From: Natribaculum luteum
GTDB taxonomy: Archaea > Halobacteriota > Halobacteria > Halobacteriales > Natrialbaceae
Assembly: GCF_023008545.1 (NCBI RefSeq)
Contig: NZ_CP095397.1
Coordinates: 1,736,001-1,800,000, forward strand
Direction of reading: 5' to 3'
Length of the DNA stretch: 64,000 nucleotides
The notes below the pieces were generated by a model that was not told the DNA's origin, did no database searches, and saw only the letters and a list, made by a program, of their open reading frames with translations. Made by a program: the position numbers and the translations under genes. Numbering within the stretch: the first letter of the stretch is position 1; every line of letters starts with the position of its first letter. Shown here one piece after another: positions 42,907 through 56,034 of the stretch.

Positions 42907-43659
42907 TTACGAGTACTTGAGGTTGAGTTCGATGGCGTTGGCAGCGCTCTGGACCGTCTCGGTAATCTCGTCGTCTCGCAGCCGACTCGAGGGTGCCGAG
43001 ATGCTGATCGATCCGCAGGCGGAGTCGTCGCCGGGTTTGATCGGTGCGGCGACCGATCGCAGTCCGACCAGGCGTTCTTCCTCGTGTGTCGCGTAGCCGC
43101 GGTCTCGAACCTGCTGGAGTTCGTCGAACAGTTCGTCGGGATCGGTGATCGTGTTCGGCGTCGCCTGGGGGAGTCCGTGCTGGTCGATGATCTCTCGGAC
43201 GCGTTCTTCGGGCATGTACGCGAGGATCGCCTTTCCCTGTGCCGTGTAGTGGAGGTGCGTCCGGTGGCCGACGTACGTGTCCAACTCGACCGCCTGCTCG
43301 CCTTTCGATCGGTAGAGGTAGACGCCGATCCCGTCTTCCTCAACGAGCAGATTCGCGAGTTCGCCCGTCTTCTCGGCCATCTCCTTGACTTTCGGTTTGG
43401 CGGTTTTGTACAGTTTCATCTGGCTTCGAAGGTGGCCGCCGATCTCGAGGAACTTCAGGCCGAGACAGTACCGATCTCCGTTCTGTACGACGTACCCCTC
43501 CTCTTTGAGCGTCTGGAGGTGATTGTGGACTGCGCTCTTTCCCATGCCGACTTTCTCGCTGAGTTCCGTGACGCGACCACATTCGTCCTCTTTTAGCACC
43601 TCGATGAGCCGCAACGTTTTCTTCGTCGTCCCAACCGGGTGTTTCGCCTCGTTTGACAT
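42907..43659 (-). CDS. IclR-family transcriptional regulator
   Basis: A 250-aa protein. The N-terminal winged helix (KKTLRLIEVLKEDECGRVTELSEKVGMGKSAVHNHLQTLKEEG region, about residues 13-55) is followed by an IclR effector domain with VGHRTHLHYTAQGKAILAYMP (about 122-142) and RGYATHEEERLVGLRSVAAPI (about 184-204). The family senses small organic metabolites. ATG 43659 is used; an ATG eight codons upstream is possible. It is divergent from the Fe-S/NrfD and molybdoenzyme genes, 455 bp away, making it a candidate regulator of the sulfur locus. Confidence 0.88.
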   Translation of the reverse strand: MSNEAKHPVGTTKKTLRLIEVLKEDECGRVTELSEKVGMGKSAVHNHLQTLKEEGYVVQNGDRYCLGLKFLEIGGHLRSQMKLYKTAKPKVKEMAEKTGELANLLVEEDGIGVYLYRSKGEQAVELDTYVGHRTHLHYTAQGKAILAYMPEERVREIIDQHGLPQATPNTITDPDELFDELQQVRDRGYATHEEERLVGLRSVAAPIKPGDDSACGSISISAPSSRLRDDEITETVQSAANAIELNLKYS

Positions 43660-44114
43660 GTGGGTTCTGTTCACAACTTTCATCGTGCTCCTACAAATGT
43701 GTATCCCCGACGCCACAATCTGTTCTGAAATAGAGAACAAAGATGGCGCTTCGGTGTGGGCTCCCGTCTCTGTCAGACGTCATCATGCCCCGCACTCTGT
43801 GGCAATTTTTACCCCACTCGAGGTGCACGCACGTCCGTTCTCGTATAGAGAATTATCTCGTATTTGAATTACTATCTACGTTGTCGACGGTACTGTGGCG
43901 ACGATTCGATCGAAGGCAGCGTCCGCCGAGCTTCGCGCACGCCCGATGACAACCCGCCGTTCCATCGAGTAGTTGCCCTCCCGGCTGGCCGCCTGCATCT
44001 TCGTTGCCCCGGCGGACTCGCAGGAGACAGTCGAGTCGTGGGCGTCGCTGCATACCGCTTTCGACACAAAGCTTAAGTGCTAATCAACCTCACGATACGT
44101 AGTAACACAGAACA
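43660..44114. other. Divergent regulatory region between IclR regulator and the molybdoenzyme operon
   Basis: 455 bp without a gene. A TATA element cttaag (44072-44077) sits about 40 nt before ATG 44115; AT-rich tacaaatgtgtatccc (43692-43707) and gagaattatctcg (43849-43861, an imperfect dyad) may serve the IclR gene. No frame of note. Confidence 0.45.
44072..44077 (+). promoter_or_regulatory. TATA element of the molybdoenzyme operon
   Basis: CTTAAG within aaagcttaagtgc, about 40 nt before ATG 44115, implying a short leader of about 12 nt. Confidence 0.4.
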
Positions 44115-45894
44115 ATGAGGGTGATCCCCAATCACTAACTATGGATTCGTCATCGACAACCGGAAGTGTATCGGGTGCCACGCCTGCACCGTCGCGTGCA
44201 AGGCCGAACACGACGATCCGATCGGCGTCAACAAGACGTGGGTCAAGTACATCGAGAAAGGGGAGTTCCCGAACACGAATCGGAACTTCTCCGTGATGCG
44301 GTGTAACCACTGCGACGACTCGCCCTGTACCGACGTCTGTCCGGTGACGGCGCTGTGGGAACGCGAAGACGGCATCGTCGACTTCGACACGGAGCGGTGC
44401 ATCGGCTGCAAGGCGTGCATGCAGGGGTGTCCGTACGACGCCCTGTACATCGATCCGGAGACGTCGACGGCGGCCAAGTGTAACTACTGCTCTCACCGCG
44501 TCGATTCGGGTCGCGAACCGGCCTGCGTCACGGTCTGCCCGGAAGACGCTATCGTCGCGGGCGACATGGAAGATCCCGACACCGAGATCACGCGAACCAT
44601 CTCGAACCAGGAGGTGCAAGCGCGCAAGCCCGAGAAAGGGACCGAGCCCAAGCTGTTCTACGTCGACGGTGACGAGGGCAGCGTGACGCCGGGGACGACC
44701 GGCCGCGAAGAACACTACATGTGGAGCGACGCACCGACGCAAACGGAGGTGCAAGGCGGCGAGCGTGAGGACTTCGATCTCCAGCGTGCCGCCGAGTCGC
44801 TCGCGAACTCGGACGTGACGCTGTCTTCCTCGAGCGACGGCGAGGCTCGTGCCGACGGCGGCTGTGGCTGCGGTGGAAACTGCCGCTGTCAGTCCGACGG
44901 CGACGGCCGGGTCGCGTCCGACGGCGGCGTCGCCACGAGCGCAGACGCTGCGACGAGTTCCGGAGGCGGACACACTGCCGACTCGAGTTCCGGAAGCGTC
45001 ACGCGGGCGTACGAACTTCTCCACGAGGAGGCACGCCGGGTCTACGACATCGGCGAGAGCCACTACCAGTCGTGGGGCTGGGAGGTGTACTCCTACACGT
45101 GGACGAAGTCCATCTCCGCGGGCGTCTTCCTCGTCCCCGCGTTGCTGATGGCGCTTGGCATCGTCGAACCGAGTGCGAGCCTGATCGGTGCCAGTTCGCT
45201 CGTCAGCATGGCATTCCTCGGGCTCACCGGCCTCCTGCTCATCGTCGACCTGGAGCAACCACAGCGGTTCCACTGGGTGCTGTTGCGCCCGAACTGGAAC
45301 TCCTGGCTGGTCAAGGGGGCGTACATAATCACGGCCTACGGTGCCTATCTCGCGGTCGTCCTCGCGGGCTGGCTCCTCGAGCTCGGCTACGTCACGAATC
45401 CCGCCGTGTTGCTCGGCGGTGCCGCGCTGGCGACGGCGACAGCCGTCTACACGGCCTTCCTGTTCAGCCAGTCGAAAGGCCGTGACCTCTGGCAGAGCCC
45501 GGCGATGCCGCTGCACATGTTCGCACAGGCCGTCGTCGCAGGAGGTGCGGCTACGGCGCTGCTCGGGTTCGCCGGGTTCGACGGCCTCGCCGGCCCGTCG
45601 CGGCTGGCGCTCGCCGCCGGACTGCTGACCCACCTCGTGTTGATCGCCTCGGAGATCTTCACGCCCCACCAGACCGAGGACGCAGAGGAGGCGGCCGCCC
45701 GGATCGTTCGAGGCCGGTTCCGCACGGCGTTCTGGCTCGGTGGCATCGGCGTCGGCATCGTGCTGCCGCTTGCCGTTCTCGCGGCCGGCGGGAGCCTCCC
45801 GTTCGTTGCACTCGCCGGCGCGCTCGCGCTCGTCGGCCTGTTCGCCTTCGAGTACTGCTGGATAACCGCCCCGCAGACAATCTCACTCGCATAA
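44115..45894 (+). CDS. Fe-S/NrfD fusion: DmsB-type ferredoxin plus membrane quinol subunit (5' frameshift at about 44136)
   Basis: The N-terminal 200 residues hold four [4Fe-4S] Cys motifs: CIGCHACTVAC (44167), CNHCDDSPCTDVCP, CIGCKACMQGCP and CNYC...CVTVCP, as in DmsB/PsrB/SoeB. A low-complexity linker contains GGCGCGGNCRC (44860-44892). The C-terminal 300 residues are an NrfD/PsrC-type membrane subunit of eight or so helices, starting near SYTWTKSISAGVFLVPAL. ATG 44115 opens MRVIPNH then TAA; skipping one base (T at 44136) joins NYGFVIDNRKCIGC, the conserved family start. No other start precedes the first cluster. The fusion passes electrons from the molybdoenzyme at 45898 to quinone. Confidence 0.8.
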
Positions 45895-45897
45895 CCC

Positions 45898-55074: not shown

Positions 55075-55165
55075 CCTCCCGTGATGACTGTGCCCTAGCC
55101 GGCGGTCGCGGTCGGACACGACCGCCGAAACATATAACTTCCGAACCACGAACAGTAGAATCGAC

Positions 55166-55285
55166 ATGACTCAAACGAGGTTGAACTGCTCGAGTTGTGG
55201 CTACCGGTGGACGTACGACGGCGACTCGACGCGGTACGCTCAATGTCCGGCGTGTGGCCGGAGCGTCACCGTCAAACTCCGGTAG
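55166..55285 (+). CDS. 39-aa zinc-ribbon micro-protein
   Basis: A 39-residue frame: MTQTRLNCSSCGYRWTYDGD with a second knuckle CPACGRSVTVKLR at the C-terminus. CxxCGY...CPxCG is the zinc-ribbon layout of many haloarchaeal micro-proteins. It starts at ATG 55166 with aacatataactt (55127-55138) as TATA about 33 nt upstream. Convergent with the HTH-10 regulator, 11 bp apart. No known role. Confidence 0.65.
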   Translation: MTQTRLNCSSCGYRWTYDGDSTRYAQCPACGRSVTVKLR

Positions 55286-55296
55286 CGAGGGCGAGT

Positions 55297-56034
55297 TCAG
55301 TCGGACGACGGCGCGTCGCCGAGCGGCGCAGCGAACGCCCGGACGAGCCGTGCCTCGGCTCGCCGGAGGCGATACGAGAGCGTCGACCGGGGGACCTCGA
55401 GGTCTGCGGCCAGTTCCTCGAGCGTCGTCTCGCGGGGCGTCTCGTAGTATCCGGTCTCGACCGCCCGCTCGAGCGCGAGTCGCTGCTCGTACGGAAGTGG
55501 CGGCCCGGTTAGCAGGTGGCGCTCCCGTTCGGTCACTTCGCCGAGGTATCTGAGGTCGAAGCGGCGTTGCATCCCGAGCGATCGCTGGATGGCGTCCGTG
55601 AGCTGGCCGACGGCGTCACCTCGTTGCATGAGGACGTGCCATTCGTAGCTGTCGTGGGATCGGGTGGCCTGGAACAGGAGTCCCCCCTCTAGCCATTCGC
55701 GTGCGAGTCTGGGAATCGAACTGCACCGGTCGGTCTCGGTTCGGGAGGTGTAGATGACTTTCCCGCCCGCCGTCTCCGAGACGACGTCGTACGTCGGGCT
55801 GGCGGTACACCCCGGCGTCCGCAAACAGTCGTTACAGTGCTCGTCGTCGAGGAAGACGTCCTCGAGCGTCTCGACGGCAGCGGGCGGCCCGGTGATCCAG
55901 TCGAGTCGCCAGACGCCCCGCAGCGAAGCGTGACAGGCGAGCGATCGGGCACGAAGCTCTGGCTGTTCGATGAAGACGTCCATGACGGGATCCGCGCCGT
56001 GGTCGTACTCGATCTGGAAGACGAGCTCTCGCAT
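55297..56034 (-). CDS. HTH-10 (bacterio-opsin activator-like) regulator with Cys cluster
   Basis: A 245-aa protein. The N-terminal sensor half (about residues 1-130) carries Cys34, then EHCNDCLRTPGC (Cys67, 70, 76) and Cys104, a possible iron, zinc or redox/persulfide-sensing cluster. The C-terminal HTH-10 domain (about 192-240) reads YETPRETTLEELAADLEVPRSTLSYRLRRAE, with the Bat/DmsR-family recognition helix. Halobacterium DmsR, a relative, controls a DMSO reductase operon. Its place at the end of the sulfur locus and the Cys pattern suggest a sulfur or redox sensor. That is inference. Confidence 0.82.
   Translation of the reverse strand: MRELVFQIEYDHGADPVMDVFIEQPELRARSLACHASLRGVWRLDWITGPPAAVETLEDVFLDDEHCNDCLRTPGCTASPTYDVVSETAGGKVIYTSRTETDRCSSIPRLAREWLEGGLLFQATRSHDSYEWHVLMQRGDAVGQLTDAIQRSLGMQRRFDLRYLGEVTERERHLLTGPPLPYEQRLALERAVETGYYETPRETTLEELAADLEVPRSTLSYRLRRAEARLVRAFAAPLGDAPSSD

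What the first reader, a model, noticed from the sequence alone, without database searches (positions are those of the whole stretch)
42907..56034. Candidate cytoplasmic sulfur-oxidation locus in a haloarchaeon (SoeABC-like complex, SoxB-like enzyme, rhodanese-PDO fusion, TauE, CysP-like permease, Cys-rich regulator)
Seen: consecutive genes for a four-cluster Fe-S/NrfD fusion, a Mo-bisPGD enzyme with Cys as probable Mo ligand and no Tat signal, a SoxB-like hydrolase without signal peptide, a rhodanese-metallo-beta-lactamase fusion, a TauE/SafE exporter and a PiT/CysP-like permease, flanked by IclR and HTH-10 regulators. Established: persulfide dioxygenases make sulfite, SoeABC oxidises sulfite in the bacterial cytoplasm, TauE proteins export sulfite and related anions, SoxB acts on thiosulfonate. 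Inference: together they oxidise intracellular sulfane sulfur through sulfite to sulfate, delivering electrons to menaquinone. I do not know of a described haloarchaeal pathway with this gene set.
Basis: partly seen in the sequence, partly recalled or inferred. Interest (0 to 1): 0.82.

Follow-up and report, generated by a model that had tools for sequence, protein, structure and literature searches.

The report
Haloarchaeal cytoplasmic sulfite/persulfide oxidation gene cassette
A salt-loving archaeon carries a conserved, movable set of genes that very probably oxidises sulfur compounds to sulfate inside the cell, using a molybdenum enzyme related to one of green sulfur bacteria and an unusual relative of the sulfur-cutting enzyme SoxB.

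Summary
The genes are real and intact; the conserved neighbourhood runs to 58602. The 11 genes compared with a congener evolve under purifying selection (dN/dS 0.06-0.19). The Mo subunit and fused Fe-S/NrfD protein form a two-gene complex 53-60% identical to bacterial complexes. In Chlorobium sp. N1 the homologue lies beside TauE, DsrC and DsrA, which fits PSRLC3, a proposed sulfite oxidiser. It stays apart from the PhsA, PsrA, DmsA and ArrA rows tested; true SoeA could not be fetched. Sulfur genes flank 49 of 80 family loci. The full cassette recurs in five haloarchaea of two families, but its modules separate: 24 of 26 SoxB-like loci lack the Mo gene. The SoxB-like protein is not SoxB: below cut-off, no Tat signal, SoxY over cut-off in 0 of 194 genomes, Glu for a metal-site His in 29 of 29; yet it shares SoxB's Trp at the nucleotidase catalytic His and sits beside a persulfide dioxygenase in 20 of 26. 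Likely: persulfide to sulfite, sulfite to sulfate with electrons to quinone, S-sulfonate cleavage, export. All chemistry is inferred.

The parts
42907..43683 (-). IclR-family regulator, divergent from the first cassette gene
   Evidence: PF01614 138.9 bits; orthologues 62-63% identical, also divergent from the first cassette gene in N. caseinilyticum and H. gelatinilyticum
44125..45894 (+). Fe-S/NrfD fusion: electron-transfer and membrane subunit; no standard start codon in frame
   Evidence: Fer4_11 and NrfD; cluster Cys read from the translation; 7 hydrophobic stretches by a simple scan; start-less part under purifying selection
45898..49008 (+). Mo-bisPGD catalytic subunit (PSRLC3/SoeA-like), no Tat signal; Fe-S Cys 78/81/85/115, probable Mo ligand Cys206
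49186..50976 (+). SoxB-like dimetal hydrolase, no export signal, Glu233 in place of a metal-site His
   Evidence: TIGR04486 214.2 bits against a cut-off of 550; motifs; tree
50995..51423 (-). universal stress protein
   Evidence: PF00582 89.0 bits; same place and strand in the four other full cassettes
51659..52819 (+). rhodanese-persulfide dioxygenase fusion (rhodanese first)
   Evidence: PF00581 and PF00753; aligned to solved MBL/rhodanese and PDO/ETHE1 chains
52848..53765 (+). TauE/SafE anion exporter
   Evidence: PF01925 65.0 bits
53887..55074 (+). PiT-superfamily permease, nearer CysP than PitA
   Evidence: PF01384 157.7 bits; CysP model 63.4 bits (cut-off 400), PitA model 18.7
55297..56034 (-). 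HTH-10 regulator of HVO_2928 type; membership of the cassette not shown
   Evidence: PF24281, PF04967; among clustered loci found only in congener G137
56136..56606 (+). DUF2299 protein
   Evidence: PF10061 29.6 bits; near the Mo gene in 6 of 19 distinct haloarchaeal loci
56753..57943 (+). Mrp/NBP35 ATPase, probable Fe-S carrier for the Mo complex
   Evidence: near the Mo gene in 17 of 19 distinct haloarchaeal loci and in R. jostii RHA1
57970..58602 (+). DUF5828 protein
   Evidence: PF19146 230.8 bits; also near the Mo gene in L018 and annotated in the N. caseinilyticum cassette

Best explanation
This is a conserved, laterally moving haloarchaeal cassette for oxidising sulfane sulfur and sulfite in the cytoplasm. 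Proposed working: the rhodanese domain loads sulfane sulfur onto a low-molecular-weight thiol (gamma-glutamylcysteine in haloarchaea, recalled); the persulfide dioxygenase domain turns the persulfide into sulfite with O2; the PSRLC3/SoeABC-like two-gene molybdenum complex oxidises sulfite to sulfate and passes electrons through the four-cluster Fe-S part to quinone at the NrfD domain; the SoxB-like hydrolase cleaves S-sulfonates (thiol-S-sulfonate or tetrathionate) to sulfate and a reduced or zero-valent sulfur product that re-enters the dioxygenase step; TauE and the PiT/CysP-like permease move sulfite, thiosulfate or sulfate across the membrane; Mrp/NBP35 (and MobA in the Natrinema and Halomicrococcus copies) mature the Mo complex. 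Shown here: gene content, conservation, phylogenetic place among the rows used, missing signal peptides, recurrent sulfur-gene context. Inferred: every reaction, its direction, the quinone, the transported ions and the physiological purpose.
For: Mo subunit 53-60% identical (tblastn) to bacterial two-gene complexes; by local alignment 57% T. roseum, 56% R. jostii, 60% Chlorobium sp. N1, 63% L102. Tree: family 100/99, haloarchaea one clade 99/99 within it, apart from PhsA, PsrA, DmsA, ArrA and three own paralogues. In Chlorobium sp. N1 the pair precedes TauE (132 bits), DsrC (148.2, cut-off 53.5) and DsrA (508.8, cut-off 392.85). Sulfur genes in 49 of 80 loci: PDO 32, SulP 31, YeeE 11, DsrE 9, TusA 8, TauE 6; five control genes 0-3 of 80. 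One locus reads CsoR-type regulator, rhodanese-PDO, TusA, DsrE, FeS-NrfD, Mo, SulP. Full cassette in five haloarchaea of two families. Of 25 SoxB-like loci outside the own genome, PDO lies within 2.5 kb in 19 and TauE in 17. Precedent: in Erythrobacter flavus 21-3 a SoxB annotated as 5'-nucleotidase is proposed, from mutants and stoichiometry, to free sulfate from tetrathionate instead of from SoxYZ, and MBL/rhodanese Sdo proteins to oxidise the sulfur further (PMC7608252, abstract and passages). PSRLC3 is called an alternative sulfite-oxidising system (PMC6338057, one passage). dN/dS 0.06-0.19 for 11 genes.
Against: No activity data. SoeA of A. vinosum or A. aeolicus was not available for the tree. 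Of 19 distinct haloarchaeal Mo loci, 7 have none of the sulfur genes searched for within 10 kb (L019, L020, L021, L075, L089, L093, L212); 31 of 80 scanned loci showed none, 18 of them among the 55 loci of at least 15 kb. Both the Mo gene and the SoxB-like gene are in only 2 of 194 sampled genomes, against 7 with the Mo gene and 25 with the SoxB-like gene. Rhodanese-PDO genes are in 190 of 194 haloarchaea, so presence alone says little. The SoxB model also gives sub-threshold matches in 10 of 14 control genomes, so its score alone is weak evidence. The metal-site His to Glu change could alter or abolish SoxB-type chemistry. The control genes were taken from the same loci, not drawn at random. 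In Beggiatoa, SoeABC is encoded but the authors exclude it as the sink for PDO-made sulfite (PMC11507549, passages).
Confidence: 0.7

Rival explanations
1. Same enzymes, but the purpose is detoxification: the cassette removes excess persulfide, sulfide-derived sulfur or sulfite (for instance under copper or sulfide stress) rather than feeding respiration.
For: PDO-TauE-rhodanese sets are known sulfane-sulfur detoxification systems (recalled); 9 of 25 SoxB-like loci outside the own genome have a multicopper oxidase within 2.5 kb, and a Cys-rich DUF326 protein lies at 6; a universal stress gene lies inside the cassette.
Against: A quinone-linked Mo complex with Mrp and, in some copies, MobA genes is costly for detoxification alone (inference); in Chlorobium the homologue sits with the dsr genes of lithotrophic sulfur oxidation.
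Confidence: 0.35
2. The Mo complex runs as a reductase of sulfur, thiosulfate or tetrathionate on the cytoplasmic side.
For: Sequence relatives PhsA and PsrA are reductases; bacterial SreA groups with SoeA in a published tree (PMC10100899, passage).
Against: No Tat signal; frequent neighbours are sulfite producers (PDO, Dsr) and sulfate carriers (SulP), and PDO needs O2.
Confidence: 0.12
3. The Mo complex oxidises sulfite released from organosulfonates rather than from sulfane sulfur.
For: TauE is a known sulfite/sulfonate exporter family (recalled); one haloarchaeal copy lies near genes that look by eye like a TRAP transporter (L020).
Against: I recognised no desulfonating enzyme in the neighbourhoods read, though no dedicated search was made; PDO, TusA, DsrE and rhodaneses are the recurrent neighbours.
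Confidence: 0.1
4. The SoxB-like protein is an ordinary cytoplasmic 5'-nucleotidase or phosphohydrolase paired with a phosphate permease.
For: Annotated so in public records; Pfam 5_nucleotid_C and PHO4.
Against: The nucleotidase catalytic His is Trp in 29 of 29 haloarchaeal, 8 of 8 bacterial SoxB-like and 3 of 3 SoxB proteins, and His in the one nucleotidase used, UshA; neighbours are often sulfur genes.
Confidence: 0.1

Closest known systems
PSRLC3 of green sulfur bacteria (polysulfide-reductase-like complex 3)
   Same: Two genes (Fe-S/NrfD fusion and a Mo subunit about 60% identical), beside TauE and dsr genes in Chlorobium sp. N1. That this Chlorobium pair is PSRLC3 is my inference; the passages seen give no sequence.
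   Different: In an archaeon, with no dsr genes seen at the locus; partners are PDO and the SoxB-like protein; a PiT permease instead of SulP.
SoeABC sulfite:quinone oxidoreductase (Allochromatium vinosum, Aquifex aeolicus)
   Same: Cytoplasmic Mo-bisPGD subunit with Cys ligand, four-cluster Fe-S part and NrfD-like anchor, as described in PMC10100899 and PMC8076601 (passages).
   Different: B and C are fused here; a published survey lists SoeC only in Proteobacteria, Clostridia and Aquificae (PMC8076601, passage). Direct relation to SoeA not tested.
SoxB thiosulfohydrolase
   Same: Metallophosphoesterase plus 5_nucleotid_C architecture; Trp at the nucleotidase catalytic His; sister clade in the tree (96/90, long branches).
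   Different: Below the SoxB cut-off, no Tat signal, no SoxY in the genome, Glu for a metal-site His.
SoxB-Sdo module of Erythrobacter flavus 21-3
   Same: A SoxB-type protein proposed to act on tetrathionate instead of SoxYZ-bound sulfur, with MBL/rhodanese sulfur dioxygenases (PMC7608252, abstract and passages).
   Different: That pathway starts with the periplasmic cytochrome TsdA; I noticed none at this locus but made no search for it. Sequence homology of the two SoxBs was not tested directly.
R. jostii RHA1 pRHL3 sulfur cluster
   Same: MBL hydrolases, DsrE, TusA, Fe-S/NrfD, Mo subunit and Mrp in one cluster.
   Different: No SoxB-like gene or TauE in the stretch shown there.

Membership tests
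PSRLC3-type complex | same clade of Mo subunit as the Chlorobiaceae two-gene complex | tested here: met
   family 100/99, joint clade with Chlorobium and others 99/99; the PSRLC3 name for the Chlorobium pair is inferred
PSRLC3-type complex | Fe-S/NrfD gene next to the Mo gene | tested here: met
   19 of 19 distinct haloarchaeal loci; Chlorobium sp. N1
SoeABC | cytoplasmic catalytic subunit, no Tat signal | tested here: met
   N-termini read; a twin-Arg pattern without a hydrophobic stretch occurs in four haloarchaeal relatives, not in the window protein
SoeABC | Cys Mo ligand, one 4Fe-4S site in A, four clusters in B | tested here: met
   Cys78/81/85/115 and Cys206 aligned to PsrA and ArrA; 16 cluster Cys read in the Fe-S part
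SoeABC | three separate subunits A, B, C | tested here: not met
   B and C are fused
SoeABC | branches with characterised SoeA | not testable with these tools
SoeABC | sulfite:quinone oxidoreductase activity | not testable with these tools
   needs biochemistry
SoxB | score over TIGR04486 cut-off (550 bits) | tested here: not met
   214.2 bits, 207.8 bits in the genome search
SoxB | exported by Tat | tested here: not met
   no twin-Arg signal in 29 of 29 haloarchaeal rows (start of L059 uncertain), present in 3 of 3 SoxB
SoxB | SoxYZ carrier in the organism | tested here: not met
   SoxY over cut-off in 0 of 194 haloarchaea, own genome without any match; one sub-threshold match in G096; SoxZ not searched
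SoxB | Trp at the nucleotidase catalytic His | tested here: met
   29 of 29
SoxB | complete set of metal-site residues | tested here: not met
   His to Glu in 29 of 29; the other aligned positions kept
Persulfide dioxygenase | HxHxDH motif and PDO-type Fe ligands | tested here: met
   THIHADH, TPGHT and TGD aligned with MBL/rhodanese and PDO chains; Fe-ligand roles recalled
Bifunctional Blh (NF040641) | score over curated cut-off 625 | tested here: not met
   59.9 bits
TauE/SafE exporters | over Pfam cut-off | tested here: met
   65.0 against 32.6
CysP sulfate permease | score over NF053884 cut-off 400 | tested here: not met
   63.4 bits; PiT superfamily only
TtrA, ArrA, PhsA, DmsA/YnfE | score over curated cut-off or branching with them | tested here: not met
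   121.2, 121.3, 197.7 and 197.2 bits against 1750, 1600, 694 and 777.7; apart from PhsA, PsrA, DmsA and ArrA in the tree; TtrA not in the tree

The most novel reading that the evidence does not exclude
Haloarchaea possess a complete cytoplasmic route from thiosulfate, tetrathionate or elemental sulfur to sulfate that couples to the respiratory chain, in which a new SoxB-like subfamily with an altered (Glu) dimetal site cleaves free thiol-S-sulfonates without any SoxYZ carrier, beside a PSRLC3-type sulfite:quinone oxidoreductase; the set moves between families on megaplasmids.
Probability: 0.3. Interest if true: 0.8.

Novelty: new variant of a known kind. Interest (0 to 1): 0.62.

Why it matters
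In my library searches (I saw listings, starts of abstracts and some passages only) I saw no description of sulfite or persulfide oxidation to sulfate in haloarchaea, nor of a haloarchaeal SoxB; papers outside that library were not seen. If right, hypersaline heterotrophs would be an uncounted sulfate source, the PSRLC3 sulfite-oxidase idea would gain a genomic argument (recurrent pairing with persulfide dioxygenase across phyla), and a protein filed as 5'-nucleotidase and present in 25 of 194 haloarchaea would be reassigned to sulfur chemistry. Some haloarchaea are genetically tractable (recalled), so the idea is directly testable.

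Tried and rejected
Considered and rejected: arsenate, tetrathionate, thiosulfate or DMSO reductase identity for the Mo subunit (TtrA by profile score only); plain 5'-nucleotidase for the SoxB-like protein; true SoxB; rhodanese-PDO presence as a marker, because 190 of 194 haloarchaea have it.

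Led nowhere: a structure of the SoxB-like protein from one sequence, mean pLDDT 32.8, not used; a viral-contig scan for the SoxB-like protein, no relative; attempts to reach true SoeA, among them five other plasmid Mo-enzyme loci opened in search of it: three annotated ones whose neighbours do not fit SoeABC and two without annotation. The first Mo tree held a wrongly framed own paralogue and a Sulfurovum row read through its frame-shift with X at stops; one search replaced it. The tree used 37 rows (all 13 haloarchaeal rows, 15 bacterial rows, Sulfurovum, Azoarcus, 7 outgroups); the other bacterial rows were left out for time. Two outgroup rows are fragments. Long branches (haloarchaeal SoxB-like stem 3.32; outgroups of the Mo tree) make deep joins unsure; the tree tool itself warned of this.

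Full report
OBSERVATION. The window lies in a 4.61 Mb haloarchaeal genome at G000:C1:1736001-1800000. Its family (f1) also holds G387, whose 48,214-base contig C46 has the length of the Natrinema hispanicum contig; I infer Natrialbaceae. The 11 genes that could be compared with congener G137 show purifying selection (dN/dS 0.06 to 0.19; Mrp only partly covered, DUF5828 gave no hit, the fetched stretch being short).

START OF THE FE-S/NRFD GENE. The reading frame is open from 44125 and includes the first Cys motif CIGCHACTVAC, but no ATG, GTG or TTG precedes 44290 in frame. Relatives L020-L022 have an in-frame GTG directly before this point; the window and G137 share one extra base after the GTG. 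The stretch 44125-44292 shows 5 synonymous and 0 non-synonymous differences. An unusual start codon or a slip at the start is possible; I leave it open.

MO COMPLEX. The Mo subunit has Cys78/81/85/115 for a 4Fe-4S cluster and Cys206 aligned with the Mo-ligand position of PsrA and ArrA (ligand role recalled). All five are invariant in the 7-row and 8-row alignments, and no Tat signal is seen. It is 98% identical in the congener, 79-82% in most other haloarchaea aligned and 60% in L019. Plasmid hits include Thermomicrobium roseum and Rhodococcus jostii RHA1 at 53%. The tree (37 rows; ultrafast bootstrap/SH-aLRT) joins 13 haloarchaeal, 15 bacterial and the Sulfurovum rows (100/99), keeps the haloarchaea as one clade (99/99), and sets all apart from PhsA, PsrA, DmsA, ArrA and three own paralogues. 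With these outgroups R. jostii, T. roseum and the Chloroflexota rows fall outside the clade that joins haloarchaea with Chlorobium and others (99/99). This fits transfer from bacteria to haloarchaea.

CONTEXT OF THE MO COMPLEX. In Chlorobium sp. N1 the order is FeS-NrfD, Mo, TauE, a DsrE match, a TusA match, CobB, DsrC, DsrA. The term PSRLC3 was found in three papers of the library, one of them off-topic. One passage calls it an alternative sulfite-oxidising system of green sulfur bacteria (PMC6338057); another mentions '2 genes encoding PSRLC3' beside dsr genes (PMC5473276). Linking the Chlorobium pair to that name is my inference. In one Bacteroidota genome the order is CsoR-type regulator, rhodanese-PDO, TusA, DsrE, FeS-NrfD, Mo, SulP; in Gaetbulibacter YeeE/YedE, FeS-NrfD, Mo, two SulP-type genes (one scanned), PDO. 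Counted by tblastn over all 80 loci: PDO 32, SulP 31, YeeE 11, DsrE 9, TusA 8, TauE 6, PiT 0, any of these 49; five control genes 0, 0, 1, 0 and 3 (queries and controls both come partly from these loci). Of the 55 loci of at least 15 kb, 37 have at least one and 18 none.

HALOARCHAEAL LOCI. The Mo gene is in 7 of 194, and in a larger draw holding the same seven in 12 of 391, class genomes. Of 19 distinct haloarchaeal Mo loci inspected (20 less L214, which repeats L090), FeS-NrfD lies beside the gene in 19, Mrp in 17, PDO in 9, PiT in 7, DUF2299 in 6, SoxB-like and TauE in 5, TusA and DsrE in 4; 12 have at least one of the sulfur genes searched, 7 none; SulP and YeeE were not searched here. The full cassette (IclR, SoxB-like, Usp, PDO, TauE, FeS-NrfD, Mo, PiT) is in the window, G137, Natrinema caseinilyticum, N. 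gelatinilyticum (unannotated record) and Halomicrococcus gelatinilyticus (Haladaptataceae), the last three on plasmids and with the Mo pair behind TauE. Cassette proteins are 52-82% identical between the window and N. caseinilyticum or H. gelatinilyticum.

SOXB-LIKE PROTEIN. It is in 25 of 194 genomes, 17 of 65 genera, more often than the Mo gene. At the 25 loci outside the own genome, PDO lies within 2.5 kb in 19, TauE in 17, a multicopper oxidase in 9 and the Mo gene in 1; with the own locus 20 of 26 for PDO. L060, L071, L072 and L073 showed none of the genes searched. Its best-scoring bacterial relatives among plasmids are genes annotated as metallophosphatase/5'-nucleotidase (up to 188 bits), ahead of annotated SoxB (131-153 bits). 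Of seven such bacterial loci opened, five carry clear sulfur genes (MBL hydrolase, YeeE/YedE, TauE, DsrE, TusA, rhodanese or a sulfate exporter); Bosea and Bradyrhizobium show mainly Dsb-type or cytochrome genes. The tree (41 rows) gives one haloarchaeal clade (100/100), sister to SoxB (96/90) on a long branch; the four Mo-cassette members included form one subclade (100/100). Residues: Asp35, His37, Asp97, Asn130, His256 and His258 keep the dimetal pattern (roles recalled from 5'-nucleotidases); Trp131 replaces the nucleotidase catalytic His, as in SoxB; Glu233 replaces a metal-site His in 29 of 29 haloarchaeal rows, while 8 of 8 bacterial SoxB-like rows, 3 of 3 SoxB and UshA keep His. Several bacterial SoxB-like rows also lack an evident signal peptide.

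PRECEDENT. In Erythrobacter flavus 21-3, deletion of a SoxB annotated as 5'-nucleotidase stopped detectable zero-valent sulfur formation in liquid culture, tetrathionate being its proposed substrate instead of SoxYZ-bound sulfur; an MBL/rhodanese sulfur dioxygenase mutant lost further oxidation of the sulfur; two more SoxB-like genes were dispensable (PMC7608252, abstract and passages). In Beggiatoa, PDO is held to make sulfite; SoeABC is encoded but was not detected in that proteome, and the authors exclude it there (PMC11507549, passages), a caution against assuming the PDO-to-Soe link.

OTHER PARTS. The permease scores nearer CysP (63.4) than PitA (18.7) but below the CysP cut-off. Own genome: no SoxY match; one PAPS-reductase-family match over cut-off (30.4 bits); three TusA matches; a further PDO beside YeeE/YedE-family matches and a TusA near 3.498 Mb. 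Dedicated searches for SQR, TsdA, SoxZ and APS reductase were not made.

VERDICT. Observation confirmed and extended. The sulfur-oxidation reading is well supported at the level of homology and context, untested in chemistry. The SoxB-like member and the modular spread are the new aspects.

Noticed in passing
window 44117-44300: The Fe-S/NrfD frame has no standard start codon in this genome and its congener; one extra base separates the GTG used by relatives from the frame, yet the start-less part is under purifying selection.
   Followed up: partly
L050, L051, L054, L056-L058, L062-L064: In these haloarchaea the SoxB-PDO-TauE set sits beside a multicopper oxidase and, in part, a DUF326 Cys-rich protein; halocyanin-like, SHOCT-type and P-type ATPase genes were recognised by eye only. 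A joint sulfur and copper island of unknown logic.
   Followed up: partly
G000:C1:3497452-3500651 (L193, L194, L196): A second sulfur cluster in the same genome: PDO, YeeE/YedE-family matches and TusA.
   Followed up: no
L018 479-4035: Three tandem genes that look like secreted double rhodaneses near the Mo complex in G029, with a rhodanese-HTH-like gene nearby; read by eye.
   Followed up: no
G386 (L212, L213): One haloarchaeal genome has two copies of the Mo complex, one beside TusA/DsrE and one without any of the sulfur genes searched.
   Followed up: no
L190, L191 (own genome): Two further large Mo enzymes (open frames of 1100 and 1136 aa) with Tat-like starts; their families were not determined.
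   Followed up: no
L080: The Sulfurovum mangrovi homologue of the Mo gene is frame-shifted in its record.
   Followed up: no
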